NCBI GenBank assembly: GCA_022606135.1
Contig: JABYQN010000009.1
Location: 1,327,001-1,391,000, forward strand
Direction of reading: 5' to 3'
DNA from: Fomes fomentarius
Lineage: Eukaryota > Basidiomycota > Agaricomycetes > Polyporales > Polyporaceae
DNA: 64,000 bases
How positions within the stretch are numbered: the first letter of the stretch is position 1; every line of letters starts with the position of its first letter. Of the stretch, positions 20,709 through 61,522 are shown piece after piece. The position numbers were made by a program, and so were the translations under genes. The notes beneath the pieces are model-generated. The model had not been told where the DNA came from. It did no database searches and saw only the letters and a program-made list of their open reading frames with translations.

Positions 20709-22477
20709 ATGGACCTGCAAATTAACAGCTACTTCTTACTCTACGTCACAAAGGTATGCCCACTCGTTCCCTCTCATCTATCACAATACTGAGAATCCAT
20801 ATTCAGTGTACGAAAGGTGAGCAATGCATCCGCACTGATGATCGTCTCGAATGTGTTTTGATGTGGTGTAGTGGCGTCGTGCACGTTTGCGGTAAGGTCC
20901 ATCACTAGTACTAGCTTACTGGACGCATATGTAAAGGCGGTCATTCCAGGTGCTCGAGATAGCCTCGACTCTGCCCGAAGAGGTGAGTATCTATCGATTT
21001 GATGGTGCCCATCGTTGACGGTGGTTCCTCACCTAGGTCAACTTTGTCTGGCCCACGAAAATGAACGCAATGAAGGCTGTCTTCCTAATAAACAAGTATT
21101 CCCCCTTAGCGGATACCACACTCGGGATCATATGTATGTCATTTACGGACGATGCCGTAGCTGCATGTTACTGAGCAGTTCTGAAGTGGATCTATGTACA
21201 TACGACTCCAAGGCAAGTTCTTTCGAGCTCCCCATAAATCAATTAAGCAGATCTTTTTCAGTCGTGTGCGATCCAATATCAAGTACTAGCATGTGAGTAC
21301 TTGACACTGCTAGAGCCTCTTCAGCACACTCACGTGTCACAACGGGCAGACTCTTACGTCGTCGGTATCCTTTTTTCTGAATGTACGACCATGAAAGTTT
21401 GTCATGTATCTCTCATCACGTTCATTGACAATCTTCACCACAGCCATACTGATGGCAAGGACAATGGCTTTATGGGGCTTCAACAGATTTGTCGTAATAC
21501 TCCTAGTTGGTGCGGCTATTGAGATGGTCGTACGTCATGAACTGTCCTCTACACGACGCTCTGACTGAAAGGGATACAGCCGCTTGTACTGTGGGTTGTC
21601 TATAATACTCTGGCCGAGACAACGTGTCTGTACATCATCCCTTGCGTTACGTCGCTATTGCTGAAGTGAAGAATCCTAGATCCCACTACCGAGGTCCTCC
21701 GTATCATTGGATGCGTTCCCAGCACTCAGGACCAGGACGCCTGGCCCGCATATTTGTGTATGATCCTCGCCGAGACTGGTGGGTGCAGCGCCCAAGTTAC
21801 ATGGCTTATAAACTCAAGATGTTCTAGGGATCGTCGTACTGACATTGCTCAAGCAATACATGAACCCCGTCGGTGCGTGGGTGAGTCGGAATAAAGGGCT
21901 CTAATCTAGCTGACTCCTATCCAGGTGAAGGCGCTTCCAAGAGCGTGCTGTTTGAGACCATGTATCGTGATGGTGAGTTACTCTTCGAGACCATCATTCG
22001 CAGACTCCGACATGTTCCTTCGCAGGACTGTTCTTCTATGCAATTGTGCTATGTACGTCTTGCCTTGCACAGACTCTCCACTCCATGTTTGACATCCATG
22101 TTCATCTAGCCATCTCGGTCGTAAACGTGCTCGTGATGCTATTTGCGCCGGTGGGTACTTGGACAACTTACGATATCATCCGGGGTTAATCAGTTCCTCC
22201 AATGTGCAGCCAGAACTCTCCCCTGCCATGCAGATGTCAGTCCCCCTCCATGTCTACCTCGTCCGTTCTTCGTTTCCGACTCAAGTATTCATCCCGAACT
22301 GCCATCGACAGGCCACTCCGCGTCATACACAGCGCGCTGTGTACGCGCGTCTTGCTCAACCTTCGCAAAGCTGCCTCGGCATCTCCGGACGCCACCTTGA
22401 ACGACACCTTCTCGAAGCATACCACAATCGCCTTTCATCATAGCACTTCCGAGCACGTGGACTCTGATGACGAATGA
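20709..22477 (+). CDS. DUF6533-type seven-pass membrane protein, left-arm copy
   Basis: Exon 1 (20709-20753) encodes MDLQINSYFLLYVTK. It is followed by a 10-nt microexon (20807-20816), a 20-nt exon (20872-20891), a 33-nt exon (20950-20982) and a 97-nt exon (21037-21133). Spliced, these read CTK-VASCTFA-VLEIASTLPEE-VNFVWPTKMNAMKAVFLINKY, which matches the DUF6533 pattern of a helix, an acidic D/E-E pair, W, a basic stretch and NKY. Later exons give ILMARTMALWGFNRFVVILL, PLVLWVVYNTLAETT, a VPSTQDQDAWPAYLC loop, IVVLTLLKQYMN, FFYAI, ISVVNVLVMLFAP and the conserved C-terminal block IHSALCTRVLLNLRKAA, ending in an acidic tail. Seven helices are expected. The function is unknown; a receptor-like or transporter-like role would be inference only. 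No premature stop was found in the exons I could follow, unlike its right-arm twin. Confidence 0.72.
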
Positions 22478-22745
22478 GATTCTTGGGAATGGAACGACGT
22501 GATTCGTTATTCTCGCTGTGGAGAGGCCGCGCCGGCTTTGATACCTTGTTGCCTTAGCAGTAATCGTTCACCACATCGTTGTGCATGCCTCTTTGACAGC
22601 TTGCTATACCATTTCCGGCAGCATGACAGCTCATTTTTTCTTCCATGCCGCGGCTCTTGGCACGAACCTGTATCATGTACATCGCAGAGTGCATTCCGGC
22701 AGTCGCCACGCAGGATAGAGGGCCAGAGGCACATGGCCCGCATTA

Positions 22746-23477
22746 TTTCTCTTTCTGACCGGGGAGATCAGTGCGTTCACATGCTTGGATAAGTTACAAT
22801 ATGACACTAAACATGGTACAGATCTGATATTTCTCACCTTCATGACACGTTGCGTGAGTGATGGTCCATGGAGATTGTGTGAGTACACCATGTTGATGAT
22901 AATCCTGCAGCTCATGCTTACCTCGACTATGAGCCGAGGCCTTCCTCCTGGTTTGCACCAACATACAAACAGAAGAGCATGCTCACTACATACAGTGAGT
23001 GCGCGGGGAATAGCCATCCTCGGTGGCAGTCTGCACAGCATTGCGGAGGTTCAAGAGGCCGTGCATGTAGAGCGCACTTTGAATTTACACGGATCGGCCT
23101 AGCATATGTGAAAATTTTGTAGTCAGCGGATCAGCCATACCGTCCTCAGGCAATGAATGGAAACTATCGGATTAATGAACAGGCTCATCTCGGACTGTTG
23201 CAACGTGACACTCCCAGTCTACTTTCTGGAAGAGCGGTTGCAGTGCCATCGCGTCCACGTAGTACAGGGGCAGCGGACATGACAACTATGTTCATAACGA
23301 AGGAGATTGGATGTCTGAGTGAGTAGTTGTGCATCATGTCCGAGCGTGTACTAATGCCGTATATCGAGAATGCTGGCATAGAAGAAATATTCTACATCCT
23401 CACTGCGGTTCTCTGTCTATCTTTCCTTTCTGAGGCATATACCCCCAACGAGCGCCAGCTCGATATGATACAACCTC
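22746..23477. other. Spacer of the inverted duplication
   Basis: About 730 bp not shared between the two arms. It is not empty: the part from about 23030 to 23400 holds a degenerate DUF6533 fragment (listed separately). The rest shows nothing recognisable. Confidence 0.5.
23030..23400 (-). pseudogene. Relic of a third DUF6533 gene (C-terminal half)
   Basis: Read on the minus strand, the region shows FFYA..IL (about 23385), then ISFVMNIVVMSAAPV (about 23270-23310), which parallels ISVVNVLVMLFAPV of the neighbours. Near 23030-23105 it carries a decayed version of the conserved tail block: the neighbours' GTGCAGAGCGCGCTGTGTAC appears as GCATGTAGAGCGCACTTTG, with a stop inside. The N-terminal exons are absent. 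It has the same orientation as the right-arm copy. Confidence 0.65.
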
Positions 23478-23763
23478 GGACTCGCCATGTGCCTCTGACC
23501 CTCTATCCTGCGTGGCGACTGCCGGAACGCATCCTGCGATGTACATGATACAGGTTCGTGCCAAGAGCCGCGGCATTAAAGAAAAAATGAGCTGTCGTGC
23601 TGCCAAGATAATAAATATAGCACTGAGCTGTCAAACAGGCATGCACAACGATGTGGTGAGCCGCGATTACTGCTGAGTCCGCAACAATGTATCAAGCCAA
23701 CCCTGCCAGTGCCTCCTCTCGACAGCGACACTAACGGATTACGCTCTTCCACTCCCGAGAATT

Positions 23764-25555
23764 TCATTCGTCGTCGTCCGAATCTACACGCTCGGAAGCG
23801 CTATGATGAAAGGCGATTGTGGTATGCTTCGAGAGGGTGCCGTTCAAGGTAGCCTCCGGCGATGCCGAGGCAGCTTTGCGAAGGTTGAGCAAGACGCGCG
23901 TACACAGCGCGCTGTGTATGACGCGGAGTGGCCTGTCGATGGCAGTTCGGGATGAATACTTGAGTCGGAAACGAAGAACGGACGAGGTAGACATGGATGG
24001 GGACTGACATCTGCATGGCAGGGGAGAGTTCTGGCTGCACATTGGAGGAACTGATTAACCCCGAATAATATCGTAAGTTGTCCAGCCCGAGTACCCACCG
24101 GCGCGAGTAGCATCATGAGCACGTTGACGACGGAGATGGCTGAAACCACCCAGATGAACACGGATGTCAAACATAGAGTGGAGAGTCGGTGCAAAGCAAG
24201 ACGTACACAGCACGATTGCATAGAAGAACAGTCCTGCGAAAGAACATGTCGGAGTCTGCGAATGATGGTCTCGAAGAGTAACTCACCGTCACGATACATG
24301 GTTTCAAACAGCACGCTCCTGGAAGCACCTTCACCTGGAAGGACTCAGCTAGATTAGAACCCTATATTCTGACTCACCCACGCACCGACGGGGTTCATGT
24401 ATTGCTTGAGTAATGTCAGTACGACAATCCCTGGAACATGTTCAGTTTAAACGCCATAAATTGGACGATGCACCAACCAGTCTCTGCGAAGATCATACAC
24501 AAATATGCGGGCCATGTGTCCTGGTCCTGAGTGTTGGGAACACACCCAGTGATATGGAGGACCTCGGTAGTGGGATCTAGGATTCTTCACTTCAGCAACA
24601 GCGAGGCGGCGACATATCGCAAGGAATGATGTACAGACAAGTTACCTCGGCCAGAGTATTATAGACGACCCACAGTACAAGCGGCTGTATCCCGTTCAGT
24701 TAGAACGTCGCGCGCAGTGGAAGACAGTTCATGACGTACGATCATTTCAACAGCCGCACCAGCTAGGAGTATCACGACAAATCTGTTGAAGCCCCATAAA
24801 GCCATTGTCCTTGCCATCAATATGACTGCGTTGAAGATTGTCAATGAACGTTATCAGAGATACATGACAAACTCTCGTCGTACATTCAGAAAACAGGATG
24901 CCGACGACGTAAGAGTCTGCCCGTTGTAACATGTGAGTATGCTAAACAAGATCTAACAGTGTCAAGTACTCACATGCTAGTACTTGAAATCGGATTGCAC
25001 ACGACTGAAAGAGGTCTGCTCAATTGACTGTTGGGGGAGCTTGAAAGAACTTGCCTTGGAGTCGTATGTGCATATATCCACTTCAGAACTGCTTAGTAAC
25101 ATATCGTTACGGCATTGGGGTTCGCAAATGACATACCGATGATCCCGAGTGTGGTATCCACTAGGGGGAATACTTGTTTATCAGGAAGATAGCCTTCATT
25201 GTGTTCATTTTCGTGGGCCAGACAAAGTTGACCTAGGTGAGGAGCCACTGTCAACGATGGGCACCTTCAAATCGATAGATACTCACCTCTTCGGGCAAAG
25301 TCGAGGCTATCTCGAGCACCTGGATTGACCGCCATTACGTATGCATCCAGTAAGCTAGTGATAGTGATGGACCTTACCGCAAACGTGCACGCCGCGACTA
25401 CACCACATCAGAAAACATTCGAGTCGATTATCAGTGCGATGCATTGCTCACCTTTTGAGCACTGGATGTGGATACTCAGTATGGTGATAGACGGAAAGGA
25501 GTGGGCATACTTTTGTGACGTAGAGTAAGAAGTAACTGTCAATTTGCAGGTTCAT
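23764..25555 (-). pseudogene. DUF6533 membrane protein gene, right-arm copy, frameshifted
   Basis: This copy mirrors the gene at 20709-22477. It has the same start (25555), the same 10-nt microexon (25452-25461), 20-nt exon (25378-25397) and 33-nt exon, and an almost identical C-terminal exon ending at 23764. In the C-terminal exon it differs at a few residues (for example ATLNGTLS for ATLNDTFS) and has one extra Asp. In the exon with VNFVWPTKMN the sequence reads TATTCCCCCTAGTGG, where the left copy has TATTCCCCCTTAGCGG. One T is missing, which shifts the frame and makes an immediate TAG (25161-25163). The product would stop after about 70 residues, before most helices. All other splice sites appear kept, so the lesion is probably young. 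Confidence 0.75.
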
Positions 25556-26097: not shown

Positions 26098-26197
26098 AGA
26101 AAGAAGCCTTTGCATACCATTTTCGCCCGCACTAGCACTGTAGCAGTGCACAGACGATCCATGTCCGATCCATGGTGACTGACGCGGCAGCGCAGGT

Positions 26198-28016: not shown

Positions 28017-30390
28017 ATGTCGCAGACGACAGCCATGAAGACTGGACGACAAAATAGACAGAGCGTGGAGAGCGATGACGCAGCTCTGGCCGCGCTCGGG
28101 TACAAGCAAGAGTTCAAGCGGTCGTTCAACGCCATCGAGGTCTTCGGACTTGGTTTCAGCATCATTGGATTGTTCCCTTCCATCGCGTGAGTCTTCTTGA
28201 ACTCGACCATCCTGCTACATCATAGCTGTTGATCATGATACGTATAGCTCCGTCCTTGTCTTTGCTATTCCCTATGGCGGACCCGTCGCTATGGTGTGGG
28301 GCGTACGTCCCTACCCCTTATATGCGCATCGTCTGTGTCTGGCATGCTGACTACGCATTGGAACGGCGAAGTGGGCGGTCTGCGCATTCTTTCTTATGTT
28401 CATCGCAATGGCCCTCGCGGAGCTCGGCTCGTCCGCACCAACCTCGGGAGGGCTGTATTACTGGACGTGGACGCTGGCAAGCCCACGATGGAGGAAGGTG
28501 CTCTCCTGGATAGTTGGATGTACGTACGCTTTGGTGTTCCTTATGCGGCCCTTCGCTCATAAATTGCTCCTGCAGACTCCAACTCCATAGGTCTCATCGC
28601 CGGCTTGGCGTCTATCGACTGGGGATGCGCCGTTCAACTCATGGCTGCAGTATCGATCGGGACTGACGAGAGCTTCGCTCCGACTACGGGACAAACATTG
28701 TAAGCTGCAGCTGCACGCCATGAAACATGCCGACCTTGCGGTGCTTTGTACTGATTCTACCAACGTGCCAACAGCGCCGTATTTGTTGCCCTCTTAGCGT
28801 GCCATTGCCTTGTGGCCTCTCTGGCGACTCCGGTGATTGCGCGGCTGCAAGGTGTCTATGTCGCGCTGAACATTATGTGAGCATATCATACTATGTGGTG
28901 CGTCGCCCTCCCTCGAGGGCGTCGTTTGTAGTAGCCGCGCTGACTGGCAGTTGTTCAGACTCTGCCTTGCCATCATCGTCGCGCTCCCCGTCGCAACCCC
29001 GAAGGAGTTTCGTAACGCGCCCTCTTTCGCATTCGGAGGTTTCACTAACTGTAGGTGGACCTTAGTATGGTCAATTGCCTAGTCAATGCCTGACTACACT
29101 GTTCCTTCCAGTCTACGGATGGCCAGACGGGTTCGCCTTCACACTCAGCTTCTTGGCCCCGTTGTGGACCATCGGCGCTTTCGACGCCTCCGTGCATATC
29201 AGCGAGGAGGCCGCCAACGCCCGCACAGCAGTTCCTTGGGCGATGATTAGCGCGGTGGGCGTTGCAGGTATACTAGGCTGGGGTACGTCACCTCCTCCAA
29301 CGCTGCTGTGCTTGAGAATATCTCTGACCATGCTGCCTCACAGTGGTCAATGTGGTTATTGCATTCCATATGGGCACGGACATGGAGGGGATCATGTCGA
29401 ATCCGATCGGGCAGCCTATGGCTACGGTACGTCCGCTCGCAGAACGTTTCAGGTCTGTATCGTTATGTGACCATCCACTTCATGTTGTATCTAGATCCTC
29501 TTCAACAGCCTCGGCCGCCGTGGAACGCTTGCGGTCTGGTCAATCGTTGTCTTCGTACAGTAATATTTCCATAACCTCACGTTCGTGAGCGCATACATTG
29601 ACGTCCATCGCTGCAGATTCCTGATGGGTTCCAGCATCGTATGTCGCTCTATCTTGCACTTGAAGAGCTAGAACATTCCTGATCTCCGAGGCTGTTCAGC
29701 TCACCGCAGTGTCACGTCAAATATTCGCCTTCGCGCGAGACAAGGCCCTACCTTTCTCGAACGTGATCTACCGCATCAACCGCCGGACGCAGACCCCCGT
29801 CAACGCCGTGTTTGCCTCCGCATTCATCGCCCTGCTCTTAGGTCTCCTGGTGTTCGCCGGACCGACAGCGAGTTCGGCCATATTCGCCCTGGGCATCGCG
29901 GGCCAGTACACCGCGTACTCCATCCCCATCGCGAGCCGCTTTCTGGGAGGGAGAAACTGGCAGCCAGGTCCGTTCACCTTGGGGCGATTCGTCAGTACTA
30001 CATTCTCAAAGTCTCCATCCCGATGTGATGACCTTGCTTATATGCGTCTCCTTGAAACTTTCGTACTACTAGGGATTGCCTGTGGCGGTCATCGCCATGG
30101 CCTGGATGATCTTCTCGGTCACCATCCTCGCGTTCCCGACCGCGCCTGCCCCGGACGCGCAGGGCATGAACTACATGATCGTCGTGTTTGGAGCGTGGAT
30201 CGCGCTGTGCCTCGTGTACTACCGCATCCCCGTGTACGGGGGTGCGTGCTGGTTCAACGGGCCGCGGGCGACCGTCGACGAACTGAACACTGGCAACAGT
30301 CGCGCCAGTTCTGCCGCTGGTCGCTCGAAGGGATCGGACGGCGTCGAGGTCGTCGTCGAGGACTTGGTCAGTATGCACGAGAAAGCCTGA
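28017..30390 (+). CDS. Amino-acid permease of the APC superfamily (GABA/choline permease type)
   Basis: A gene of about ten exons starts at 28017 (MSQTTAMKTG). The exons read FNAIEVFGLGFSIIGLFPSIA, SVLVFAIPYGGPVAMVWG, FIAMALAELGSSAPTSGGLYYWTWTL, VGYSNSIGLIAGLASIDWGC, LACHCLVASLATPVIARLQ, LCLAIIVALPVAT, FAFTLSFLAPLWTIGAFDASVHISEEA, MISAVGVAGILGW, VVNVVIAFHMGTDMEGIM, FLMGSSI, TAVSRQIFAFARDKALPFS, TQTPVNAVFASAFIALLLGLL, FALGIAGQYTAYSIPI and YYRIPVYGGACWFNGP. Twelve hydrophobic segments can be counted. The E-A-N-A motif after SVHISEE and the SRQIFAFARDKALP block are family hallmarks. By similarity to yeast Uga4/Hnm1 it should import an amino acid, GABA or choline by proton symport; the substrate cannot be fixed from sequence. 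The frames chain without a lesion to the stop at 30390. Length is about 520 aa. Confidence 0.9.
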
Positions 30391-33300
30391 GGGCACTGCA
30401 GATAGAAGAGAAAGATGGAGACACCGTGCATGTAATATTTCTCAGCTTCGAATCATCTACCATCGTCACGGATCTTGTCTCTTCGCCTCAGGCCTCAGGA
30501 GCGCACTGCGCACCGAACAAACAAGGACAATGTTTTTGGGTCGTCCGAAGGCTCAGTGCTGCCGCACTCTCCGCCGTCCGCTCATACATACTTAGGTTCC
30601 TCGTTACGGCATGACTCAAGTCGTTATCTCTGGGCGCCCAATCGAACTCACCGGCCATGCGGAATTCGGACAGTCCTACTTTCCAGACGTCAAACTATGT
30701 AGTTCGACCGTTGGCACTGGCAGTGGCACATGATGCGTGACCGCTAGCCGCTGTCCGTTGAGGACATTACGAGCTGCCCAAGATGGAACACTACGCCCTC
30801 GCGCTGTGTCTGTGATTACAATGTGCTCCTACTAGAGCATGTTCGTCAATCTCGCCGACCCGGCGAACTTCATGTCGACACTCGACAGGGTGATGCGGAG
30901 CCACGGCGTGACTCAAACTTCTCTTATCTCTTGTCTCGTACCTTCTTAAGATGCCACCCCCCATGGCATGTCCACTAGCTCTCAACCTAGTAGTAGTAGT
31001 CACAGTGCCTGCCGCCGGGTACTATCAGGTCCGACATGTTCCCCGTATTCCGAGGCTATCATCGCCCTCTCTTTCTGGTACTCGCTCTCCCAACCCCGCG
31101 GGCTTGGCGCGCCAATTCGTCTAAATAAACGTCTCTTATGTAGTCTTCCAGAAGCACTAGCCAATTCGCATATGCATGTTATCCATCCAGCCTTCCAGGA
31201 CTCGGCGAGCGCTGGCTTATCGCAACGGTCCAAATATCAAGTGTAGACACTGGACACGGTGGATTAGCTCAACTGCGATCCGTTTCGAAATGCTAACGGC
31301 CTGCGTCTTATCTTATCGTGGCCGGTGGTCGTGCATACGGCGTCGGCAGGCATGCGCAGTTGCCGTCCGTCCTATGCGAATTCCGCGGTTAGCGTTTACC
31401 CCGCAGGCTGAGTACTCACGGGAAGTCGGAAGACGACCACATCGCGGGACGAGTGTTACTGTATTCGATACCCAGGCGATACCAGGCCCCCGCCAGTGAA
31501 GGTGACGTGATAACGCGCAGACCCAGGCGGGCGGGAGAACATTACCTTGCTCGCGATAAGTGCGGCACGCGACTCTTTCTCGAAGACACTCGTACGTGGG
31601 AGCCTGAGACTCCCGGAATATGTATATGAGAAGATGGGGAGAGAGAGCAGGCGGACCCCCCCTCTCCCCCAGCGTCGTTGTGATTCCCAGCCTCTGCGCA
31701 AGGCTATACAAAACATAAGAACAAGAACGTGTACTACCAAGAAGGAACAGGTAAGTAGATAGGCAAACGAACAAGAAAGGCAGGTGAGTCTGTCGATACA
31801 AGTACAGCGATACATTACGGATACAGACGTCGACGTCCGTCAAGTGCTTGGCGTTGGCGGTGGCGGTGGTGATGAGCGGTGAGTGGAAAATGGCATACAT
31901 TTGTTGTCGTTGTTGGTGTTGTTGTTGTCGAGATTCGCGGTTTTCATTGGTTTTTTAATGTCTTTTGGATTTCCATTTCGAGCCTCCTTTCTCCACCTAC
32001 GGTTGTCGATCGAACTTCGTGTTCGGCCCCGACATCACCGTTCGCTGTTGACGTTGGCTGGCAGGAAATTGGCATTGGCGCTGACACCGATGTGGGACGG
32101 CGGACGTCGGCCAAGTGTACATGCCACAGCGATTTCTCAGCCTGTGCCGCTCGGGTCCTGTTCAAGAGCAGAGCTGCTGTGGGCGCAGCGAACGCAGACG
32201 TCGGCGTCCCCGGCGAGCTTCTTCCCTTCTCCTTCCAATGCGGATTGGGAGGCGCGGGCGGCTGAGAGCGGGGGCGTATTCACATGCACGTCTGCGGGGA
32301 TGAATCCAAAAGATGATCAGCACGCTGTCCAAGAGATAAGCAGAAAGTTCAGCAGTCAACGTTCAAACGCTGAACCCCAGGACGCAGCCCCGCAGAACGC
32401 GCGGTGACGAGATGAAGAAGAAAAGAAGGAAGAAGAAGAGATAGACACGACAGGGGAAGGAGGGGAAGAACGGGGGCAGAGAATAAGCTTGAATGCGAAG
32501 ATGGCTAGGTGCCAAGCCAAGCCGTCAAAGGAAGCTGAGAACAGGGAGGAGGACGTGATAGGTATAACGACGAGAACCACGGTCGCAGATGTGCTTGTCG
32601 GAATCGGGCGGATGGGCCCTGGGAGAAGGTGTTTAGAATCCGCGCGCCTTGTAAGCGAGGTAAACACTCTCTTCCATGGCCCCATGCCCCGATACTCCAC
32701 CCCACGGCCTGTGAGAGGAAGAAGGCAGCGCATAACGGCAGAGCGTCGTGAACTCGAGAATTTCCCTCGTCTGCTTTGCCCCGCCCCACCTCGCCTAGTC
32801 TCTTGTCGTCGTCGAACACATCTCCATCTTGCAGTGGCTGATGCGATTGACAGCGACAGAGAAGAGAAGGCGTGAGGAGGCAGAGACGCGAGGCACGACG
32901 AAGGACTTGGGCGAGGCGGCTCAGCCAGCCACGGCCCACGGACGGGCGACTCGATAACGCGAGAAGCGTCGCGACTCGCGGTTCTCGATCATCGTGTCTC
33001 GAGCGTCGAGGGTCAGAGTTCGACGTGCCGTCATCGTGTGCACCGTGCCGTCCTCCTCCCACATCTTCCACGTCACGTTCTTGCGAACCGTAGTCCCTGT
33101 GTCATGATGTGCGGCGTGCGCTGTGGTTCAAGAGGTCTGTGGGTATCGTAAAAGGTGAATCCGGGGTCCGTGGGTCCATGATATCGTATGTGGAAGGAGA
33201 AGTGGGGACAAATGGAACGAGTGCGTATGGTGGCAATGGGAGTGGAGATACGTAGTCTGAGAGTCCGAAACAAGGGGCGGCGGTGGCAGTAATGCAGCTC

Positions 33301-37895: not shown

Positions 37896-39962
37896 TCACA
37901 CCCGAGCCTCTCTTCCGCTGTCACCGTCCCCAAGGGACGACCCCCAATATGAGTCCCCGTCTTCCAGTGCATCAAATGGCCCAGATGCGAACACCAGCGA
38001 AGTCAGCTTCGTCGCCACCCCGCCCGATGAGTCGTCCAGGGCGTCACCGTTTCCCGTCGGGCCCGCGGCGGCTCTGCGGAGGTTGAGCAGGACGCGCGTG
38101 CAGAGCGCGCTGTGTACCACCCTGAGTGGCCTGCGGGCATCCAAACGGGCATCAGCGAGGTCTCTAGGTCTTCAAGCATGCACCGCGTTATGCGTGTTCA
38201 GGAAAGCGAATGGGCGACAGAGACATTGTCTCAGGACAGCAGTGATTGTGACCGTGACTCACATTTGCATGGAAGGAGAGAGCTCCCGCTGTGAGAGGGG
38301 GTAGTAGCGGGTTCGTCAGCTGGCAGACGAGATAGGTAGGTGGCTTGCTCACAGGAGCGATTAGCATCACGAAGACGTTCAGGACGGACACCGCTAGACG
38401 CAGGAGCAGCGCATTCAGACAAAGCAGCGCCCCATGTGGGAGAAGGTGGGGATGCAAGGGTTACCTAGCACGATGAAGTAGAAGTGTATCCCTGCGTGTG
38501 CGCCGGCGCGACGAGCGCAATCAGCGATCAACCGTGCGCTGGAAGCCGGATTAGAAGACATACCGTCGCGATAGATGGTTTGCATGAGGACGCTCGAGTC
38601 CCCCGAGCCTGTATGGGAACATTCGCTCCATATCAAGTCAAGACATCGACACATATATATGGCGCACTTGTGGCATCATCGTCACGGGCCAGATAGCGTT
38701 TGAGAAGGGTAAGGGCAATGATGCCTGCGTCATACAGAGGATCAGCTGTCAGCAGTGGCACGGACATAGTCTCGGAGTAGGTCGACGGTGAGGAAGTGTG
38801 GACTCGTACCTGTCTCTGCGAGCATCATGCAGCCATATGCCGGCCAGCTGTCCCTGTCCTGTGTTGACGGCATGCAACCTGTGACACGAAGGATAGCAGC
38901 GGTAGGGTCTACGATCGTAAGTCAGTTTGTCAGGAGTCCCGATCAAAGGCGCCAGAGAAAGAGCCATGAAGTTAAAGGGTTAGGTAGGTCGACTTACACT
39001 CTGTATACACCACCGTCTGGTACACCACGTAGAGCGTCATCATCTACGTGACGACCTCTGTGAGTTAGGAAACTCCAACCCGGGAGAGGATGATAGTAAC
39101 TCACTAGGAACTCGATATATGCCCCAATTATCAGGAGTTTGACGTATCTGTGGAATCCCCAGATGGCCAGAGTCCTATTTGCGAGTATAGCTACATATCA
39201 AACTCCTCAGCTGAGAAGCGAGGAGCAGGTGCGTAGGTATCCAACCTTCGGATATGAGAATGCCTGCAGTGTAACAATCTGCGGGTCATCAGTGCCATGC
39301 AAGTCGAAGCCTGAGAAAAGGGCAATTGCACACATGCTAGAGCTTTGAATTGCTTTGCGCATAGCTACGTGAACGGGCGATGTGTAAGAGCTCATGTGCT
39401 GGCTTTGCGATTACACCTACATCGGGGTCTTGCGTCCGAAGTGCACCTGTCAAGTGAGTCATGAGTGCGCGATTTGGGTTCGAGAGCAACCGTCTGACGT
39501 ACAAGCGACTGCGAGTGTGCCATCCAGGATGATAGAATACTTGTTAATGAAATACACTGCCTTCATGATACTCCAGCGATTCGGCCAGATGAAGGCAACC
39601 TGCGTGGCGGTAGGTGAGTACTGACGGAGAGAAAGAGTGATACGGAAAGCGAACAGATCGCACCTCGTCGGGAAGCGTTGAAATAATCTCAGCCAACTGA
39701 CCGTGGTTGTACGTCACTGGAAGCTGAACACGGTTTGATACATGCCACATACCGCGAAAGCCACAGACGCAACTGCATCAAAGATAGGTCTCAGTGCACT
39801 ATCCATCTCTTCAAGTCTTAGAGAACGGCTACCTTTGCAATACTGGGGGGTACTGTGAATAACGGTGATGACATGTGTACATCAGAGGAGTGAAGACGAC
39901 ACCTTCGTAATCTGCAACAAGTGCGGATTCTCAAGAGAAAATTGGACATGTTCGGCGCTCAT
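37896..39962 (-). CDS. DUF6533-type seven-pass membrane protein (array copy 1)
   Basis: The start at 39962 gives MSAEHVQFSLENPHLLQITK. This is followed by the 10-nt microexon at 39833-39842 (YCK), the 20-nt exon at 39753-39772 (VASVAFA) and the exon LAEIISTLPDE, so the gene shares the microexon plan of the subfamily. The next exon reads VAFIWPNR..KAVYF. Downstream are the helix SVLNVFVMLIAPV and the C-terminal block LRVVHSALCTRVLLNLRRAAA, then a tail with an acidic Asp/Glu and Gly-rich stretch ending DSGREARV at 37896. The C-terminal tail is unrelated in sequence to those of the neighbours. Middle exons (38.4-39.5 kb) are visible as hydrophobic segments, but their limits were not all fixed and a lesion there cannot be excluded. 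Function unknown. Confidence 0.65.
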
Positions 39963-40751: not shown

Positions 40752-42608
40752 TCAAGGCTCAGATGGAGACAGAGCAAAAACCACTGTTGACTGTTTGGAG
40801 AATTCGTCTTCAGCCCCACCGCCCGTATCCATAGCCGCTTTGCGAAGATTGAGGAGCACGCGTGTGCACAGCGCGCTATGTACCACGCGGAGCGGCCTAG
40901 ATCCGACCCCATTTCAGCGCGCAAACATTGACAGATTATTATGGAAAAGAGGCTATGTATCGATTGTGGTTTCACTAACTCACAATTGAGTAGACAGTGT
41001 GAGCTCATGCTGATGTTGGGGAGACTGTCAATGTCAACAGATTGTGTAGACATAGATAGCGACGTACAGGGGCTACCCACATCACGAGCATATTGATGAC
41101 GGACATTGCTGTTTGTGCAAAGTTGATATCAGCACTCTCAACCAAAAAATGACTCCCTACCCAGTACAATGGCGTAGAAGAATGACCCTGGTATAGTACT
41201 ACTATATCAGAGCAGAAGTCAGACGGGGGTGAGGTGACTTACCATCGCGATACATGGTGTATAGCAAACGCCCTTCGGATCGGCCTTCAACTGTAAACGA
41301 CCGACGACGACAGATCTAAGTACAACCCACGCTCATACTCAGCAGACATAATCACATGATGTATCGTTCATGAAACGTTTGACAATGGTCAAGGAGATAA
41401 TAGCTGATTATCGATGAGACACACTACCGAACACCTCAGGCGCAGTTACGAAAACGTACCCGTCTCGCCCAGGATGAAACATGCATAAGCGGGCCAAATG
41501 TCTTGAGCCTGTGTGGCAGGTACGCAGCCCGTGATACGGAGCCTATCTATGTTGGGGTCTGTGGGAAGCGGCGGTGGTGAGAAGATGTGGTAGGTACATG
41601 CATGAGACGCACAATCTATCCAAGCGACTGCTTGATAGACACAGTAGAGGGTGAATGGCTGTCGTGATGTGTAAGCTCTATTTGCATAGCGTTGAACCAG
41701 ATTTCGAGCCACTGACCACCATTTCAAGCAATACACCGTACAGGAGGAACTTGACGTATTCGTTAAAGCCCCATAGTGCTACTGTCCTGATGATAAGGAT
41801 AACTGCAAATCGTTGTGGTTAAACTGAGGACTTCAGTTGTCGCTGATCGCAACTTGAACTAACTCTCAGAGAGCACGATGCCAACAACATAAAAATCTAT
41901 TGTGTGCTCAGTGAGGTATCCCAATGTTCAAATGGAGAGCCGCTTACATGCCAGTGTTTGATATGTGATGGAGCAAAGCTGGTTATCGGGAGTGTGAGTG
42001 ATAGTAGTCAGCATGAGTTCTACCCGCATATGCATATGTATCGGGTCAACCTTGGTATCCTGTGTAGGTATCGCGGCTACAGCAAGATCTGATCAGACAC
42101 AGCGAAGGTACCAGGGGGTAATAGACACCAACATATGACGGCGAATGTGGTATCTATCAGTACCAAGTATCTGTTCACCAGGAATATAGCCTTCACCACT
42201 GTCAACCGGCCTGGCCAGATCAATGCAATCTGCAATGACGGAGGGTGCTCAACGGTCAGACCATGAGCGACCTCTCCGGATCTCTACCTCATCAGGAAGT
42301 GTCGACATTATCTCAACAAGCTACATGTCATTCAGTGAGCTATCGCCAATCTATATGGAGAGTGATGCCCGAGCGCGCACCGCCAATGTGTAGGAAGCGA
42401 CTAGTGTAGGGATCTCATCAGGCATTAAGCACGAGCACGAGCCGCAGACAGTCACCTGCGCAGTACTAGACATCATCGTCAGTGCAAGGGAGCTCGCAAG
42501 CAAGGCAATACCAATCGCGTCCACCTTCGTGATCTGGAGGAGATAAAGGGCGTTGAACGTTATTTGGACATTCGGGTTGATAGATAGTGCGTCGTCGGCA
42601 ACAGTCAT
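40752..42608 (-). CDS. DUF6533-type seven-pass membrane protein (array copy 2)
   Basis: The start at 42608 gives MTVADDALSINPNVQITFNA ending LYLLQITK. Then come the 10-nt microexon (42456-42465, YCA), the 20-nt exon (42381-42400, VASYTLA), a 33-nt exon LVEIMSTLPDE and an exon with IALIWPGR..KAIFLVNRY. Further down, VPATQAQDIWPAYACFILGE is the conserved extracellular loop and helix, and the gene closes with PLRVVHSALCTRVLLNLRKAA plus a short tail ending VFALSPSEP and TGA at 40752. It lies 789 nt from copy 1 and 643 nt from copy 3, all on the minus strand, so this is a tandem array. No stop was seen in the exons I followed. Confidence 0.68.
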
Positions 42609-43251: not shown

Positions 43252-45143
43252 TCAGCAGTCGTCCAAATCCAGAGCCAGTCCGTTGGGAATCGCGGGATCC
43301 AACGCGAAGACCATGTGCGCCTGCATGGAGAATTCGTCTGTCCCAGTATCCCCAGTCGTTCTTGCAGCTTTGCGGAGGTTCAAGAGAACGTGCGTGCAGA
43401 GCGAGCTATGTACCGCCTGTAGAGGCCTAATGTGGATGGAGAAGAGTACCGTCAGCGAACCATGCACCGGCCTGATATACCCAGTACCACAGATGATAGA
43501 ATATAACCAACATTTGGGTGAATGAACTTAGCTCGGGCTGTTTGGTAGGAAGGCTACTGTCTGAGTCTGTTCGGTACATCGAATGGGGTATATGTTGTCG
43601 ACGTACAGGGGCCAAACTCATTACGATCATGTTCGCAATGGAGATCGCTAATCCTTTGAGCATCAGTACTTCTGCTCGACTCGAACGTGAGACTGAAAGT
43701 CATACCTAGTATGATGGCATAGAAGAAACTTCCTGAATAGTACAGTGTAAGCACGGCTATCCCAAAAAGGCTAAGGGCGCGGGTCCTTCACCGTCTCGGT
43801 ACATGGTCCATGTCAGCTTCCGAGTTGGGACTTGGTAAGGTGCATGAGATCGAGGCGTGTGTTGACTCGGTGGCACTGTACTCACCGACCAAGCCGTCTT
43901 CACAATCTTTGACACGCTTCAGGATGGTAAGTGATATCACGACTATGATGGGTCAGACACGGTGGGGAGGTTCGTTGTCCAGAGCAGTTGACGCACCCGT
44001 TTCTCCCATCAGAAAACAAAAGAACGCCGGCCACATACCCCCGTCACGTATGACGGGTACGCATCCCGTTATGTAGAGAGTCTCATCCGAAGGGTCTAGA
44101 TCACAGTCCAGTCAGTCACGAAGGACTTAGCACGGATACCGACTCACATTCTAACCAGTACACAGTATGGTACACTGCGTAGATCGCGAAAAGCTGTTTG
44201 AATCGTACGAGTAGATATATGTCATCGGCTAAGAATTGGGCGCACTTTGTGAAGGCACTGACCCCAAATTCGATGAGCACGCCAAAACAGACTATCTTCA
44301 CATATTTGTGAAAGCCCCAGAGGGCCAGTGTTCGAATGATGAGTATGACTGTAAAGAGGAGATCACAATGGCGACACCTTTCGCTAGCTGTAGCGTGGAG
44401 CGTACCTTCAGAGACAAGTATACCAGCAGTGTAACAGTCTGCCAGGTGTAAAGCAGAGTTAATCTAACAGCAGTGAAAAGCCGGAACGCACGCACATGCC
44501 AAAGCTTGAAAAGCTATCGCGCAGTTCTGTAGACAGGAGATGTGAGAAATTGCACATATAACCACGATCATGATATAGGAATACATCATGGTTCCAGTGA
44601 GTAGGCGCTGCGTTGACTGCCAAAGATCAGATAGAACTTCAGCCGCTATTATCAGAGGCGGAGGATACCCACTTATGACCGCAATGGTGATATCGATCAG
44701 TGGAAGATATCTGTTAGCGAAGAATAGCGCCTTCGTGGGGGTCACTCGGCCTGGCCAGATGTACTCGACCTGTGCCCGTGTTTTCAAAACTTCGGTCAAA
44801 GGCAGTACAAGCATAAGAGAGACTGTACCTCATCAGGCAACGTTGAGAATATCTCAAGTATCTAACACCACACCGAGTGAGCACCATCCATCTGGTCTGT
44901 ATTGGAGCACCCTACGCACTGCTAAATTGCCTGCGATGACTTGGATTCATTAATCGAGTGTTGCGTGTAGGTGCCACGAACTGACGGAACTCACCTGGAG
45001 AGAACTAGGTGTACGTCAGCACATGGACCTTCATGAGGACGGGTACAACAACTCACCTTCATGACTTATATCAAGCGAAGGCTATCAAGCGATATGTCCG
45101 CCCCATGACCGCTGCCCTTACCGACGGACAAAGAGGACGTCAT
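43252..45143 (-). pseudogene. DUF6533-type membrane protein (array copy 3) with a stop in exon 1
   Basis: The expected first exon starts at 45143 (MTSSLSVGKGSGHGADISLD). Where the paralogues read LLQITK at the exon end, this gene reads LI-stop-VMK: the TAA at 45066-45068 stands at the Gln position, a possible CAA to TAA change. The rest keeps the family plan: 10-nt microexon (44995-45004), 20-nt exon (44920-44939, VIAGNLA), 33-nt exon ILEIFSTLPDE, VEYIWPGRVTPTKALFFANRY, later helices, and the tail block VHSSLCTHVLLNLRKAA ending ALDLDDC at 43252. An ATG two codons after the stop (45060-45062) is in frame, so reinitiation there could still make an almost full-length protein without the N-terminal extracellular part. 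It may therefore be functional despite the stop. Confidence 0.6.
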
Positions 45144-56302: not shown

Positions 56303-58552
56303 ATGGCTCCAGACGCATACGGTGTCCTGTATCACACTGCCGGGAGCAGCACATCGCGCGCACACCCCTCAAACAGCCCGAGCCTGGACGACCTCCTAAC
56401 GCCCTCGGTGGCGTTCGTGCGCATCCAATGGATCGACCTGATCAACACGATCCGCTACCGCGTCCTGCCCGCATCGTACTTTCGCCGCCTCCTCTCCGAC
56501 CCGTCCTCGCGCCCAGGCATCGGCCTCACCAAGGCGTCGCTCGGCCTCGCCGGGCTGGCGACCGCGCCCGGCTTCGGCGCCGTCGGCGAGTATCTGTACG
56601 TGCCCGACCTCGCGAGCTGGCGCGTGTGCACGTACGCGCCCGGGCATGCGGCCGTTATGGGCTGGTTCCAGGTGAAGACACCCAGTCCGCAGACGGGCCT
56701 TGCGGTGCCGTTGTGCCCGCGTTCTATCTTGGACAGGATCGTCAGGTGAGGGTTGCGAATTCCACTTGGTGTTATTACCGCCATGCATGTCACTTGGAGG
56801 ACTACGGAGGATCGCGAGCGTTACATATGCGTGCACTATGACCCGGGTAGGGCGCCCGTCGACGTCCCTGCCCATGTCCTTGTCAACGTCTGCGTCTGCT
56901 AAAAAGCATCGCCTGCGCGCTATCGAGGTCGCGTGTCATCGTCGTCTCTCCTAGCAGCATTCTAGCCTACTAGAGCATCTCTAGCTCCGGCCAACCTTTG
57001 CCTCGAATACGTCGCGCATGCCCATCGTACTAGTACTGACACAACTCAAACCGCCAGGGAAGCATACGACAAGGCCGGGGTATCCTTCCTGGTCGGCGTC
57101 GAGTCCGAGTTCATCCTCCTCAGCGCGACCGCGCCCGAGCCCGTGTGCGTGAACCACGCCGACTGGTCCTGCGCCGCAAAGACGCGCACGGGCAGCGTCG
57201 AGGCGCGCGTGCTCGAGGAGATCGCGCAGTGCCTGCTCGCCGCCGGGGTCGAGCTCCAGATGTACCACGCAGAGGCCGCGCCAGGCCAGGTGAGAGTTGC
57301 TCTCCCTCTTTTTTGTGTCGCCGGATTTCGCGGGTTCGGGGCTGTCTTGTGCCCTGGCCAGGAGCGGAAATCAGAGATCGGAACTTTCTAGCCCCCTGAG
57401 CCTCCACTGTCCAGTGGCGCAGCTTTTCGCGTTAACCATTTGGTTTGCGAGTCGATTCATCCTTCTTCTCTCCCTAGACCCGGATCCTGGCTCTGGCTCT
57501 GGCGCTGACTGACTTTACATCTGATTTCTGCGCATGCTCCGAACCCGTCTCTGGCTCGAGACGTTAGTATGAGGTCATCACCGGCCCTCTGGCGCCCCTC
57601 GAGGCTGCCGATGCGCTCGTGTTCACCCGGGAGACGATTTACAACATCGCGCACAAGCACGGGCTCAAGGCGACGTTCTCGCCCCGGCTGCACACGGACT
57701 CATGTGAGTCCGCTCATCCACCCTTCTCTCCCATTCAAGAAAGCAGAGCAACTCATCATATACCCGCTCTTTCCATTCCTGATTCTCCCCGCCCGCTTCT
57801 CCCCACCGCACCCACCGTCCCGGTCCAGGCGGCAGCGGCGCACACACGCACATCTCCGTGCACGGCGGGCGCACCTGGCAGTCACCCCGCACGGCGGACG
57901 CCCACCGCGCGCCTCACCTCACCCCCGCCGAACGCTCCTTCCTCTCCGGCCTCCTCGCGCACTTGCCCGCCCTCTGCGCCCTGACGCTGCCTACCGCCGC
58001 GTCTTACGCGCGCATGCTCGACGGCATCTGGGCCGGGGGCACGTACGCCAGCTGGGGCACGTACAACCGCGAGGCGCCCGTACGGGTGTGCGGCCCGGAG
58101 GGGCACCGGCACTTTGAAGTCAAGTGCGTGGACGGGACGGCGACGCCGCATTTGGCGATCGCGGGCTTGCTTGCGGTGGGCGCGAAGGGCGTTGTGGACG
58201 GGCTGCTGCTGGAGGCGGGAGATGCGCAGAAGCCGGTGGCTGAGATGGACGAGAGGGAGAGAAGGGAGGTTGGGTTGGAGGAGGGAAAGGTGAGGAAGCT
58301 CCCACGGACGATTGCGGACGCGAGGAGGTTGTTGGGGGACGACGAGGTGTTGAGAGGCGTGCTTGGAGCGGAGTTTGTCGAGAAGTACCTGGGTGTGAAC
58401 GAGGTGAGTCGGACTGGTGGAGCCATTTTGTTGCTGTCTCAACAAGTTGGAGTTGGCACTGAAACTTGATCCCGCAAATACAGACGTTAGAGAAGTTCTT
58501 GACGGGCGAAGACGAGCAGGAGACCGTCAGGAAACTCGTCGAGTACTATTGA
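56303..58552 (+). CDS. Glutamine synthetase family protein (FluG-like GS domain)
   Basis: Five exons (56303-56745, 57058-57289, 57568-57703, 57829-58403, 58484-58552) splice in consistent phase to 484 aa. The start MAPDAYGVLYHTAGS leads into VAFVRIQWIDLINTIRYRVLP, the N-terminal beta-grasp with the D-x-x-N-x-x-R pattern of GS-I/FluG-like enzymes. Then come VGVESEFILL, the metal-ligand segment MYHAEAAPGQYEV around residue 220, GGSGAHTHISV (ATP/metal site), and YNREAPVRVCGPE with the substrate-binding arginines. Family members ligate an amine to a glutamate gamma-carboxyl using ATP: glutamine synthesis or, in several fungal and bacterial relatives, gamma-glutamyl-polyamine formation. This type is distinct from the housekeeping eukaryotic GS-II, so a catabolic or specialised role is more likely. 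All catalytic blocks are kept. The amidohydrolase half of Aspergillus FluG is absent. Confidence 0.88.
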
Positions 58553-59725
58553 CCGACCTGCCTTGCTGTAAACGCTCCTTTCTCTCGTCGAGAGAGTCCA
58601 TGTAGATCACACGTTCAACCGCTCAGCACTCAGATTCTGAGGGAGCTCTCATGTCCTCCGACTCTCCGCTGACGTCCCCTTCGCCCCCGTTGCATCCAAA
58701 GAGCAACCCCGCTTTCCGATGATGCATGGTGCACCATGCATCGGCCTATAACGCGCATGGCATATGCATAGCTCGCCCAAATTAGTACGCAAACAGTCGA
58801 ACACGGAGCCCCGAGACCTGGTCCTGGAGACCGGCGAGTATCACTGGCAGCATCCCGCACGGTGTCAATGTAGCAGCGTGTTCTTTGTGCCCCTTTGCAC
58901 GATCCCATCTGCAGAAACGTGGCTCCATACCCCGCTCGCCGTTGTAACTCGTACCCGACCATGCGGGGTAGTACACTCGGAGACCACAGAAACGCCATAT
59001 CGGGCTGCGACGGTCCCGAACTTGAATTCGAAATCTCGATCGACTGTTGAGGGTGTGGGTCGGGGCATGCTGTATGCGCAGCACGTTTGTCTATCTTTGG
59101 AGCAAGATCTAGAATTTGGCAGCTCATCAATCATTGCTAGTCACATTGAGGTAACACGTTCGCCCTTCCGAAAACACTGTGGTTCATTTCTGTCCGGTCT
59201 CATTTCTGCCACGGCGTGCGACGTCGGCGATTATCCGGAACCGAGGACGCAACGGGACACACCAGCACAAATAGCACATATCATTCGCTGTTAACATCCA
59301 TGACATCCTATCATCACTCACGCTGCTGCGGGCGCACAGTGTTGGTACGAAGCAGGTAGATAGCTTTAAATAGCATTAGGTTTGCGGACTCGGAGCAACT
59401 GTACAAGTGCATTGGGGATGTCATGTTCGATTTCATCGCTGTTGCTGAAAAAAGGTGTCAGCTGGTATATACTGCCAGTCGCAGACTCAGACTCAGAGGG
59501 GCTCTTGGACGCACTACTATCGCGACCGAGCAAAAATTGACGTGAAAGTCAATCATCATTGGGGAGTTGCTAAGTAAAGGACGCTGTCTCGGATGCATAG
59601 TTACAACATACAAAAAACAACGCATCCATTGCACAGGGAGGCCCGGGCGCCGGGCTCGAAGCGCATGCGGTACAGTATCGAGGCCGGCGTCGCCTCGACT
59701 CAGAGTTCTAGGATACATGCGCCGC
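58553..59725. other. Intergenic region between convergent genes
   Basis: 3' flanks of the GS-like gene and of the minus-strand DUF6533 gene. The 58764-59294 plus frame overlaps minus frames and has no motif. Confidence 0.45.
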
Positions 59726-61522
59726 TCACTGCGGGTAGTCATTGAGTGTCATTTCCGACGTCGCTCTTGCCGCCTTGCGGAGGTTGAGCATAACTCGAGT
59801 GCACAACGCGCTGTGTACCACGCGCAGCGGCCTACATAATCACAGCCGGTGCAAATGTATCAGTGGGAGGAAACGCGCGACACGAATGGCCACGGGCGAA
59901 AGTGACACACATTTGCATGAGAGAGGTAAGCCCTTCCTGAAAGTAGCCAAGTTCCGGGATTCGTCAGCTCGGGGTGACACTCGAACAGAGGGATACTTAC
60001 CGGCGCGGTAAGCATGACAACAAGGTTCAACACAGACATCGCTAAGCATATATACCTTTCAGCACCACGAACAGAGAGGTTCCTCGAGGACGTACCGAGC
60101 ACAATCGCAAAGAAGTATGTGCCTGAGGTTAATATAGTCACCAGACTTGGTCGATGGTCAAGGGAGAACGCCTCACCGTCGCGATACATGATCTTGTACA
60201 GCCTGAGAGCCCTATTGTACGAGCGTTCCTCTGGGTCAGACAGGCGGTAATAAGTGTCCTCTCACATTAAACGACATCTGCTCCCATATGATATCCACTC
60301 ACCGTAGGATTCGGAATACTTCTTGAGTAAGGTGAGGAACATGATTCCTGTAGTATTCGCGCTGTCACTATCGATCTCTCCTGATACTGACTGGGTGCCT
60401 GGAGCGTACTTACCCCCCTCCGCTAGAATCAGACACATAAATGCAGGCCAAACATCTACATTCACAAGGCGAGGTATGCAGAGAAATTTGTCGGGCATGG
60501 TGTCTCTACGAGGTTCTATATCTTAGTTCAACGTCCGTCATCAGCGCCAAAGCGAGTCCTTGAGGAAGAGGTCGCCTTACCACCCAAGGAGCCGACTGCG
60601 TTCAGCGTCGCAAATAAAGCAAAGGTCTATAGTTAACAACAGCTGGTCAGGGACTGCGATGCGGAAGGATGTGGGCACTCACACTCAACTCCATGCCTAC
60701 GAGTGACAAGAAGATGACGACGTACTTGTTGCGCTTCCAGAGCGCGACTGTACGAGCGACGAGTATGACTATGGTCATATCCACGTTGTCAGCCGGCATC
60801 CGGGTTCTAAGGGCATCACTAGGAGACTTGACTGACGTTCAGAGGAGGTCATTCCAAGGATATAGACGTCTTAGGAGTAGGATGAGCACCGCGACGATGT
60901 GTCTAGCGAAGGTGACTCACAAGACAGTATTCTGACGTGCACTCTGCAAATCTGTGAACATATTCAGTATGATGACGCCGGTTCACAACGAATCAGCACT
61001 TGCATTCGGGTCGTAGGCGAATATATTCACTTGGGACGATTCAGCGTGTGCGCGTCGATGGCATGCATCATGGCTTACCGGTGATGCTGAGAATCGTGTC
61101 TCCAAGGCAGGAGTATTTGTTGACGAAGTAAACGATCTTCATAATGCTAATATTTGCGGGCCAGACTAGGGCAATCTAGAGGGCCAATGGGCGATGAGTG
61201 CATCGGATGGAAACAGCGAGACCGGTGCGACCTCATCGGGAAGCGTGGCAATGATCTCGAGCAACTGCATGGGCAACAGTCAGTTCTATATGACAGGTGA
61301 TCAAGGAATCGAGAACCCACCGCAAATGTGAGCGCTGCAACTTGCAAATCCAAGTGTAAGTCGTGGGTTCGTCGCAGTGGTAGACAACGAACGACTTACC
61401 TCTCGGATACTAAGTAGATGAATGCGATCAGACATGGTATCGCGAAGATATCATAGAACTTAACGCACCCCGATGATGTAGTGGAATGTGACAGCCTGCG
61501 AGGACGGCAGTTGTAACAGCAT
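59726..61522 (-). CDS. DUF6533-type seven-pass membrane protein
   Basis: The start at 61522 gives MLLQLPSSQAVTFHYIIG. The exon chain shows the subfamily plan: 10-nt microexon 61400-61409 (YPR), 20-nt exon 61321-61340 (VAALTFA), 33-nt exon LLEIIATLPDE, then IALVWPANISIMKIVYFVNKYSCLGDTILSI. Later exons give a W-x-A-F-M-C-L-I-L-A-E loop-helix segment (near 60430), FLTLLKKYSES, an FAIVLG helix, and SVLNLVVMLTAPV. The tail block is LRVVHSALCTRVMLNLRKAA, followed by a short end SEMTLNDYPQ and TGA at 59726. It is about 14.5 kb from the tandem array with unrelated genes between, so it moved or diverged earlier. No lesion was found in the exons followed. Confidence 0.68.

What the first reader, a model, noticed from the sequence alone, without database searches (positions are those of the whole stretch)
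20709..61522. Shared microexon chain (10 nt, 20 nt, 33 nt) across six DUF6533 paralogues
In six separate loci the DUF6533 core is cut in the same way: a 10-nt exon, a 20-nt exon and a 33-nt exon between ordinary short introns. The 10-nt exons are at 20807-20816, 25452-25461, 39833-39842, 42456-42465, 44995-45004 and 61400-61409. The 20-nt exons are at 20872-20891, 25378-25397, 39753-39772, 42381-42400, 44920-44939 and 61321-61340. The 10-nt exon encodes three residues plus one base (CTK, CSK, YCK, YCA, FSP, YPR), and the splice phase is identical in all. Exons this small are hard to define for a fungal spliceosome and are nearly always missed by gene finders, so database models of this family are probably wrong at the N-terminus. 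Their retention across paralogues suggests constraint.
Basis: partly seen in the sequence, partly recalled or inferred. Interest (0 to 1): 0.75.

Follow-up and report, generated by a model that had tools for sequence, protein, structure and literature searches.

The report
Fungal membrane-protein genes with tiny exons
In the tinder fungus, a small group of related membrane-protein genes is cut into 17 pieces, some only 10 to 27 letters long, at the same places in copy after copy; the pieces are very probably real, but the layout looks inherited from a common ancestor and tiny exons are already known in fungi.

Summary
Observation confirmed. All six 10-, 20- and 33-nt exons stand at the stated places with AG/GT flanks and equal phases. 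Two loci outside the window, one on another contig, carry the same chain. Spliced cores match DUF6533; the 10+20-nt residues add 11.6-16.3 bits in four of four pairs. The chain is part of a larger pattern: D1, D3, D4, D5 and D6 have 17 exons with one phase vector. The genome is Fomes fomentarius; models made before its database proteins were seen agree with five of seven at the microexons. Alignment of 27 non-Fomes proteins recovers 95 of 102 modelled introns, plus four extra. Interpretation corrected: database models are mostly right here (36 of 46 hits reaching exon 4), fungi are held to splice mainly by intron definition, and fungal exons of 1, 6 and 8 nt are published. Common descent suffices. 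Most interesting: ordinary DUF6533 paralogues have one different intron there (85 of 86), so this clade may reflect a burst of intron gain. No RNA was examined.

The parts
20709..22477 (+). Gene D1: 17-exon DUF6533 gene, complete reading frame (292 aa)
   Evidence: spliced model, coordinates; 16 of 16 introns recovered from non-Fomes proteins
20807..20816 (+). D1 exon 2, 10 nt (CTK + 1 nt)
   Evidence: database model P0015 identical here
20872..20891 (+). D1 exon 3, 20 nt
20950..20982 (+). D1 exon 4, 33 nt (VLEIASTLPEE)
21187..21212 (+). D1 exon 6, 26 nt, followed by a GC-AG intron
   Evidence: not in the database model P0015, which differs from the end of exon 5 to the middle of exon 11
22026..22052 (+). 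D1 exon 14, 27 nt
22210..22235 (+). D1 exon 16, 26 nt
25287..25555 (-). D2: exons 1-4 of an 89% identical copy of D1; frame broken in exon 5 (probable pseudogene)
25452..25461 (-). D2 exon 2, 10 nt (CSK + 1 nt)
25378..25397 (-). D2 exon 3, 20 nt
37896..39962 (-). Gene D3: 17 exons, complete reading frame (323 aa)
   Evidence: database model P0007 identical over residues 1-273, lacks 29 residues of exon 17
39833..39842 (-). D3 exon 2, 10 nt (YCK + 1 nt)
39753..39772 (-). D3 exon 3, 20 nt
39664..39696 (-). D3 exon 4, 33 nt
40752..42608 (-). Gene D4: 17 exons, complete reading frame (299 aa)
   Evidence: 16 of 16 introns recovered
42456..42465 (-). D4 exon 2, 10 nt (YCA + 1 nt); not recognised in the database model P0008
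42381..42400 (-). D4 exon 3, 20 nt
42288..42320 (-). D4 exon 4, 33 nt
43252..45062 (-). Gene D5: 17 exons, complete reading frame (285 aa); first coding exon only ATGAAG
   Evidence: database model P0030 starts in the same way; 12 of 16 introns recovered
44995..45004 (-). D5 exon 2, 10 nt (FSP + 1 nt)
44920..44939 (-). D5 exon 3, 20 nt
44829..44861 (-). D5 exon 4, 33 nt
59726..61546 (-). Gene D6: 17 exons, complete reading frame (286 aa); GC-AG intron after exon 6
   Evidence: 14 of 16 introns recovered
61400..61409 (-). D6 exon 2, 10 nt (YPR + 1 nt)
61321..61340 (-). D6 exon 3, 20 nt
61232..61264 (-). D6 exon 4, 33 nt

Best explanation
The chain is the N-terminal part of the inherited gene structure of one DUF6533 subfamily in Fomes fomentarius and, on indirect evidence, in other polypores. 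The ancestor of this clade had a gene of about 17 exons for a membrane protein of about 290 aa (inferred to have seven transmembrane helices, as its relative SNB1 is predicted to have); duplication copied the layout to a cluster on one contig and to another contig. The exons are spliced constitutively, each short intron being recognised across itself (intron definition), so that exons of 10 and 20 nt join without special factors (inferred). Codons 1 to 21 of the DUF6533 domain come from exons 2 to 4. Shown: sequence, phases, homology, agreement with database models. Inferred: splicing in the cell, mechanism, direction of change.
For: The exact 10/20/33 chain stands in eight loci, two of them outside the window. 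Cores of D1, D3, D4, D5 and D6 hit PF20151 with E 9.1e-12 to 3.5e-15; including exons 2+3 raises the score in four of four pairs: 53.3 v 39.5, 56.3 v 40.0, 45.3 v 33.7, 47.4 v 35.3 bits. Five window genes give complete 17-exon frames with one phase vector. Database models of this genome, seen only afterwards, agree at exons 2 and 3 in five of seven, and over 252 of 252 residues in one. A profile from 27 non-Fomes proteins recovers 95 of 102 modelled introns, with the whole 10/20/33 chain in five of seven loci and introns A-D at the same columns also in D2. Database proteins of other genera keep ten residues between exons 1 and 4 in 31 of 40. Seven of the eight (D2 left out) form a clade (95/88) with L065 as sister (100/94). 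Branch-site motif CTRAY in 13 of 32 introns A-D, 32 of 74 other introns of these genes, 17% in shuffles.
Against: No RNA reads were available; the database models may themselves rest on homology. In D5 and D6 the profile-based alignment placed neither intron A nor B: its local alignment began just before exon 3; it also gave four introns not in my models, one each in D3 and L089 and two in D5. The database model of D4 reads through introns A and B. Two further exon-5 matches do not have the chain: L065 (intron D, not B or C) and C2:1194611, an unsplit core that was not fetched. A metagenome frame reads exons 4 and 5 without intron D. Genomic DNA of named other species could not be read. The trees rest on few columns or weak forks, and the core tree's bootstrap had not settled. 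Seven transmembrane helices were not tested here.
Confidence: 0.88

Rival explanations
1. The tiny exons are not spliced as such: the true transcripts retain introns or use other sites, as in the database model of D4, and the chain is a chance coincidence of AG/GT pairs.
For: The database model P0008 reads through introns A and B in D4; many single introns hold no stop in the entering frame.
Against: Chance product 1.5e-9. An intron A-D is both open and a multiple of three in 2 of 32 cases (D3 intron B, L051 intron C), never the same intron in two loci; pairs of introns retained together were not counted. Profile recovery and five of seven database models agree with the chain.
Confidence: 0.04
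2. The 10- and 20-nt exons are a regulated pair: together 30 nt, they can be skipped in frame, removing ten residues at the start of the domain, and their retention reflects selection for this switch.
For: 10 + 20 = 30 nt, and skipping either alone shifts the frame. The Ganoderma leucocontextum model P0014 joins exon 1 to exon 4 and lacks exactly these ten residues. A functional fungal microexon switch is published (PMC11121469, start of abstract and passages).
Against: One model of 46 that reach exon 4; the similar proteins P0036 and P0040 keep most or all of the residues. The skip costs 11.6 to 16.3 bits of domain score. No transcript evidence.
Confidence: 0.06
3. The layout is ancestral to the whole DUF6533 family and the ordinary paralogues lost most introns.
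For: A junction after profile column 86, phase 0, occurs in both groups, so part of the layout is old.
Against: Ordinary paralogues have their own intron in codon 8, phase 1 (85 of 86), absent from the micro models; the micro clade is nested among ordinary cores and its sister L065 has D but neither B nor C (A lies outside the part compared). The root of that tree is a midpoint and 46 columns are few.
Confidence: 0.25

Closest known systems
Microexons in Phanerochaete chrysosporium P450 genes (PMC1184071, passages seen)
   Same: White-rot basidiomycete genes with exons coding 2-10 aa and frequent 45-55 bp introns; shortest exon 6 bp; nearly a third of the P450ome
   Different: Another gene family; there microexons are spread over families, here one fixed chain in the members of one clade
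One-nucleotide exon of Fusarium CYP621A and 8-nt exon of P. chrysosporium CYP5141A1 (PMC12940212, passages seen)
   Same: Tiny fungal exon found by homology to an unsplit relative and by phase; orthologues share it
   Different: Smaller exons; transcript evidence exists for the Fusarium case; described as one tiny exon rather than four or five per gene
Xlr2 microexon of Trichoderma virens (PMC11121469, start of abstract and passages seen)
   Same: Tiny fungal exon
   Different: There inclusion depends on glucose; here no sign of regulation was seen and none could be tested
SNB1 (snowball) of Coprinopsis cinerea, a DUF6533 protein (PMC10949477, one section and passages seen)
   Same: Same Pfam domain, membrane protein of a mushroom-forming fungus
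   Different: 'Intron' does not occur in its main text and 'exon' only in the guide-RNA design, so it gives no layout to compare

Membership tests
DUF6533 (PF20151) | Score over the curated cut-off of 24.1 bits | tested here: met
   45.3-56.3 bits for the N-terminal parts of D1, D3, D4, D5, D6; 43.7 for D2 up to its break; L051 and L089 not given to Pfam
DUF6533 (PF20151) | Seven-helix membrane protein as predicted for SNB1 | not tested
   No helix or fold prediction was run
Ordinary DUF6533 gene layout of this genome | Intron in codon 8, phase 1, and unsplit core after it | tested here: not met
   85 of 86 ordinary loci have AG there; the seven micro models have introns at 0/1, codon 4, 10/11 and 21/22 instead
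Fungal microexon genes | Internal coding exon of 27 nt or less between introns | tested here: met
   By sequence: 10, 20, 26, 27, 26 nt in D1, D3, D4, D6; internal 10, 20, 27, 26 in D5
Fungal microexon genes | Junctions seen in RNA | not testable with these tools
   No reads held
Regulated microexons | Condition-dependent inclusion | not testable with these tools
   No reads held

The most novel reading that the evidence does not exclude
A burst of intron gain in one lineage: the clade's ancestor lost the family's codon-8 intron, kept the one after column 86, and gained up to fifteen others in under 1 kb of coding sequence, intron D first (as in its sister L065), so that a domain core once split by a single intron is now assembled from 10-, 20- and 33-nt exons and more.
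Probability: 0.4. Interest if true: 0.55.

Novelty: new member of a known kind. Interest (0 to 1): 0.4.

Why it matters
It is a natural experiment: the same stretch of the domain is cut by one intron in many paralogues and by four in eight others of the same genome, and the complete micro genes have 16.5 to 18.6 introns per kb of coding sequence. It can test how a fungal spliceosome handles introns only 10 nt apart, and whether intron gain or loss made the difference. It also warns that some database proteins of this family carry retained introns or missing exons at these junctions (10 of the 46 that reach exon 4 depart from the pattern).

Tried and rejected
An ungapped profile from ordinary cores found the 33-nt exon and intron D in the six loci but not the 10- and 20-nt exons, because those positions were poorly covered. 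A place suggested by the pattern search, C3:1125171, showed no good DUF6533 core (best 16.8 bits, no E4-E5 join) and was dropped; four further places of that list without the family motif were not followed. A first all-against-all translated search printed nothing, I think because of a wrong option, and was repeated. The family hits were fetched only in part: 97 of 154 listed places (93 of the 150 PF20151 hits and four others), 86 of them used as ordinary rows; 11 left out (four for their type or lack of a core, seven failing the anchor test). In the core tree 71 of 86 ordinary cores and seven of eight micro members were used. In the species tree 36 of 57 database hits were used. P0044 counts as intact by length only; its residues suggest a wrong junction. 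P0017 counts as intact without an aligned exon 1. P0059 and P0060 come from metagenome sources without a name. P0061 and P0062 are distant (24 and 23% identity). A second search of PF20151 at a looser threshold gave the same 150 rows. Papers: 'DUF6533' gave 2 papers, 'PF20151' 1, 'microexons' with 'Agaricomycetes' 1, 'microexon' with 'fungi' and 'basidiomycete' 9, 'smallest exon' with 'basidiomycete' and 'introns' 2, two further searches none; I saw the listings, and passages of eight papers, and none of that showed this gene layout. Introner-type similarity among the introns was not tested.
Full report
What was checked. I call them D1 (20807, + strand), D2 (25461), D3 (39842), D4 (42465), D5 (45004) and D6 (61409), the last five on the - strand. 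All twelve 10- and 20-nt exons are where stated, with AG before and GT after. A 33-nt exon follows in each, then an exon that starts with V or I and holds the WP motif. The phases after exons 1 to 4 are 0, 1, 0, 0.

Is it more than chance? Randomising the stretch between exon 1 and exon 4 of each locus (first-order Markov, 4000 trials each) gives a 10-nt plus 20-nt chain in 0.9 to 12.7% of trials; the product over six loci, without the template D1 and its recent copy D2, is 1.5e-9. The ten residues from exons 2 and 3 of seven loci (D2 left out) have a mean pairwise BLOSUM62 score of 17.0; random frames from the same regions give -9.0 with a standard deviation of 1.7 and a maximum of -1.7 in 5000 trials. 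Introns A to D are 48-85 nt; 13 of 32 hold the branch motif CTRAY near the 3' end, against 32 of 74 other introns of these genes and a shuffled mean of 17%.

Homology. Joined without the introns, five N-terminal parts given to Pfam match DUF6533 over its cut-off; D1, D3 and D4 over 1-46 of 46 positions, D5 over 9-46 and D6 over 3-43. In four paired tests (D3, D4, D6, D1), leaving out exons 2 and 3 lowers the score from 53.3 to 39.5, 56.3 to 40.0, 45.3 to 33.7 and 47.4 to 35.3 bits.

Beyond the window. A pattern for the 33-nt exon and three protein queries for exon 5 point to two more members, one on the same contig about 12 kb before the window (L051) and one on contig C8 (L089). Both carry the exact 10/20/33 chain with the same phases. 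Of the ten places that one search lists, eight have the chain; the other two are L065, which has intron D but not B or C, and C2:1194611, whose core is readable in one exon and which was not fetched.

The whole gene. Comparing the loci with each other let me build full models. D1, D3, D4, D5 and D6 each have 17 exons and a complete reading frame of 285 to 323 aa; L051 has 16 and L089 8 exons in the DNA that was modelled. Exons 2 to 8 are 10, 20, 33, 97, 26, 31 and 33 nt in the seven models, except a 32-nt exon 6 in D5; exons 9 and 10 are 86 and 46 nt, and exons 14 to 16 are 27, 41 and 26 nt, in the six that reach them; exon 11 is 99 nt (102 in D6), and exons 12 and 13 vary by whole codons. The phase vector is the same as far as each model goes. 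D1, D3, D4 and D6 have five internal exons of 27 nt or less, D5 four; coding intron density is 16.5 to 18.6 per kb. D1 and D6 have a GC-AG intron after exon 6. D2 is an 89% identical copy of D1 with a broken frame in exon 5; intact copies such as D1 exist. D5 starts with a two-codon exon.

Independent check. A protein search with the spliced alignment, made after the models, found database proteins on a contig of 2,432,901 bases, the length of contig C9, so the genome is that of Fomes fomentarius (Polyporaceae). Seven of these proteins can be paired with D1-D6 and L051. Five hold exons 2 and 3 letter for letter; P0006 equals my L051 model over 252 of 252 residues. P0008 (D4) reads through introns A and B; P0024 (D2) starts in exon 9. 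Elsewhere the models differ from mine too: P0015 (D1) from the end of exon 5 to the middle of exon 11, P0030 (D5) lacks 18 residues around exons 15 and 16, P0009 (D6) differs at the start of exon 7, P0007 (D3) lacks 29 residues of exon 17, P0008 (D4) has extra residues after exon 6. Whether those models rest on RNA is not known to me. No database model of L089 was among the hits. As a further test, a profile from 27 non-Fomes proteins, chosen for an intact N-terminus, was aligned to the DNA of seven loci with intron states: it recovered 95 of 102 modelled introns and gave four others, with the whole 10/20/33 chain in D1, D3, D4, L051 and L089; in D5 and D6 its local alignment began just before exon 3. 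Run on D2 as well, it placed introns A to D at the same columns.

Other species. Of 57 database hits, 46 reach exon 4; 36 have exactly ten residues between exon 1 and exon 4, one more is intact with an insertion at intron D, six are longer, three shorter; 11 lack the N-terminus. Without the Fomes proteins it is 31 of 40. Some departures sit at the expected junctions: P0013 (Daedaleopsis) has 17 extra residues exactly at intron B, P0042 (Earliella) 18 extra residues, from V to Q, at intron D, P0014 (Ganoderma leucocontextum) lacks exactly the ten residues. I infer from this that introns lie at these places there too; the DNA was not seen. P0045 departs elsewhere, by two residues inside exon 3. 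The metagenome frame P0001 can be read as exon 4, intron D and exon 5 of a D4 relative. Against a fixed layout everywhere, the metagenome frame P0003 reads exons 4 and 5 without intron D. Fomes paralogues mix with genes of Earliella, Daedaleopsis and Cerioporus in a tree of 42 rows, with strong support for D4, D5 and P0010 together (99/99) and weaker support elsewhere in that part.

Contrast with ordinary paralogues. The genome has at least 150 DUF6533 cores readable in one exon (215 candidates, 150 scored). Of 86 that I aligned, 85 have AG right before nucleotide 22 of the domain, against a mean of 4.9 over the offsets scanned: one intron in codon 8, phase 1, after a motif like NYC.VAA in most (75 of 86 score over 5). 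The micro models do not have it. A later junction, column 86 phase 0 of the full-length profile, is shared by both groups: ordinary loci have GT at the matching offsets 183 or 186 in 32 and 24 of 86, and the spliced alignment places an intron at that very column in two of the 25 ordinary loci printed. L065 (contig C13) has intron D but neither B nor C in the part compared and is sister to the micro clade (100/94; seven micro rows 95/88), which is nested among ordinary cores (46 columns, midpoint root, bootstrap not settled). Gain of B and C, and perhaps of A and the rest, after D, with loss of the codon-8 intron, is the simplest reading; loss elsewhere is not excluded. Full intron maps of ordinary genes were not obtained.

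How it works. I think the exons are joined constitutively by intron definition, which a survey of 42 eukaryotes infers for fungi (PMC2397502, passages). Nothing seen here needs a microexon factor. Skipping exons 2 and 3 together would keep the frame but remove ten residues of the domain; one database model does so.

Known ground. Phanerochaete P450 genes have exons down to 6 bp (PMC1184071, passages); a 1-nt exon in Fusarium and an 8-nt exon in Phanerochaete are published (PMC12940212, passages). Hence a new member of a known kind, with an unusual concentration of tiny exons and a useful contrast within one genome.

Noticed in passing
window 13271-13375, - strand: An ordinary DUF6533 core readable in one exon (41.6 bits) lies in the same window, some 7 kb before the first microexon gene.
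   Followed up: no
L065 (contig C13:448617-451091): Sister gene of the microexon clade with intron D but neither B nor C; a possible intermediate in intron gain.
   Followed up: partly
D1 intron after 21212 and D6 intron after 61004: GC-AG introns at the junction that ordinary paralogues share; some ordinary paralogues also show GCAAG at that place.
   Followed up: partly
P0002 (UniRef A0A5K1K3X5, Ganoderma boninense): A 92-aa DUF6533 fragment is named magnesium transport protein CorA in the database.
   Followed up: no
window 407-1174 (-) and 29709-30614 (+): Frames with parts of an ammonium transporter and of an amino acid permease lie in the window.
   Followed up: no
P0003 (metagenome frame): Exons 4 and 5 are contiguous, so intron D seems absent in some relative.
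   Followed up: no
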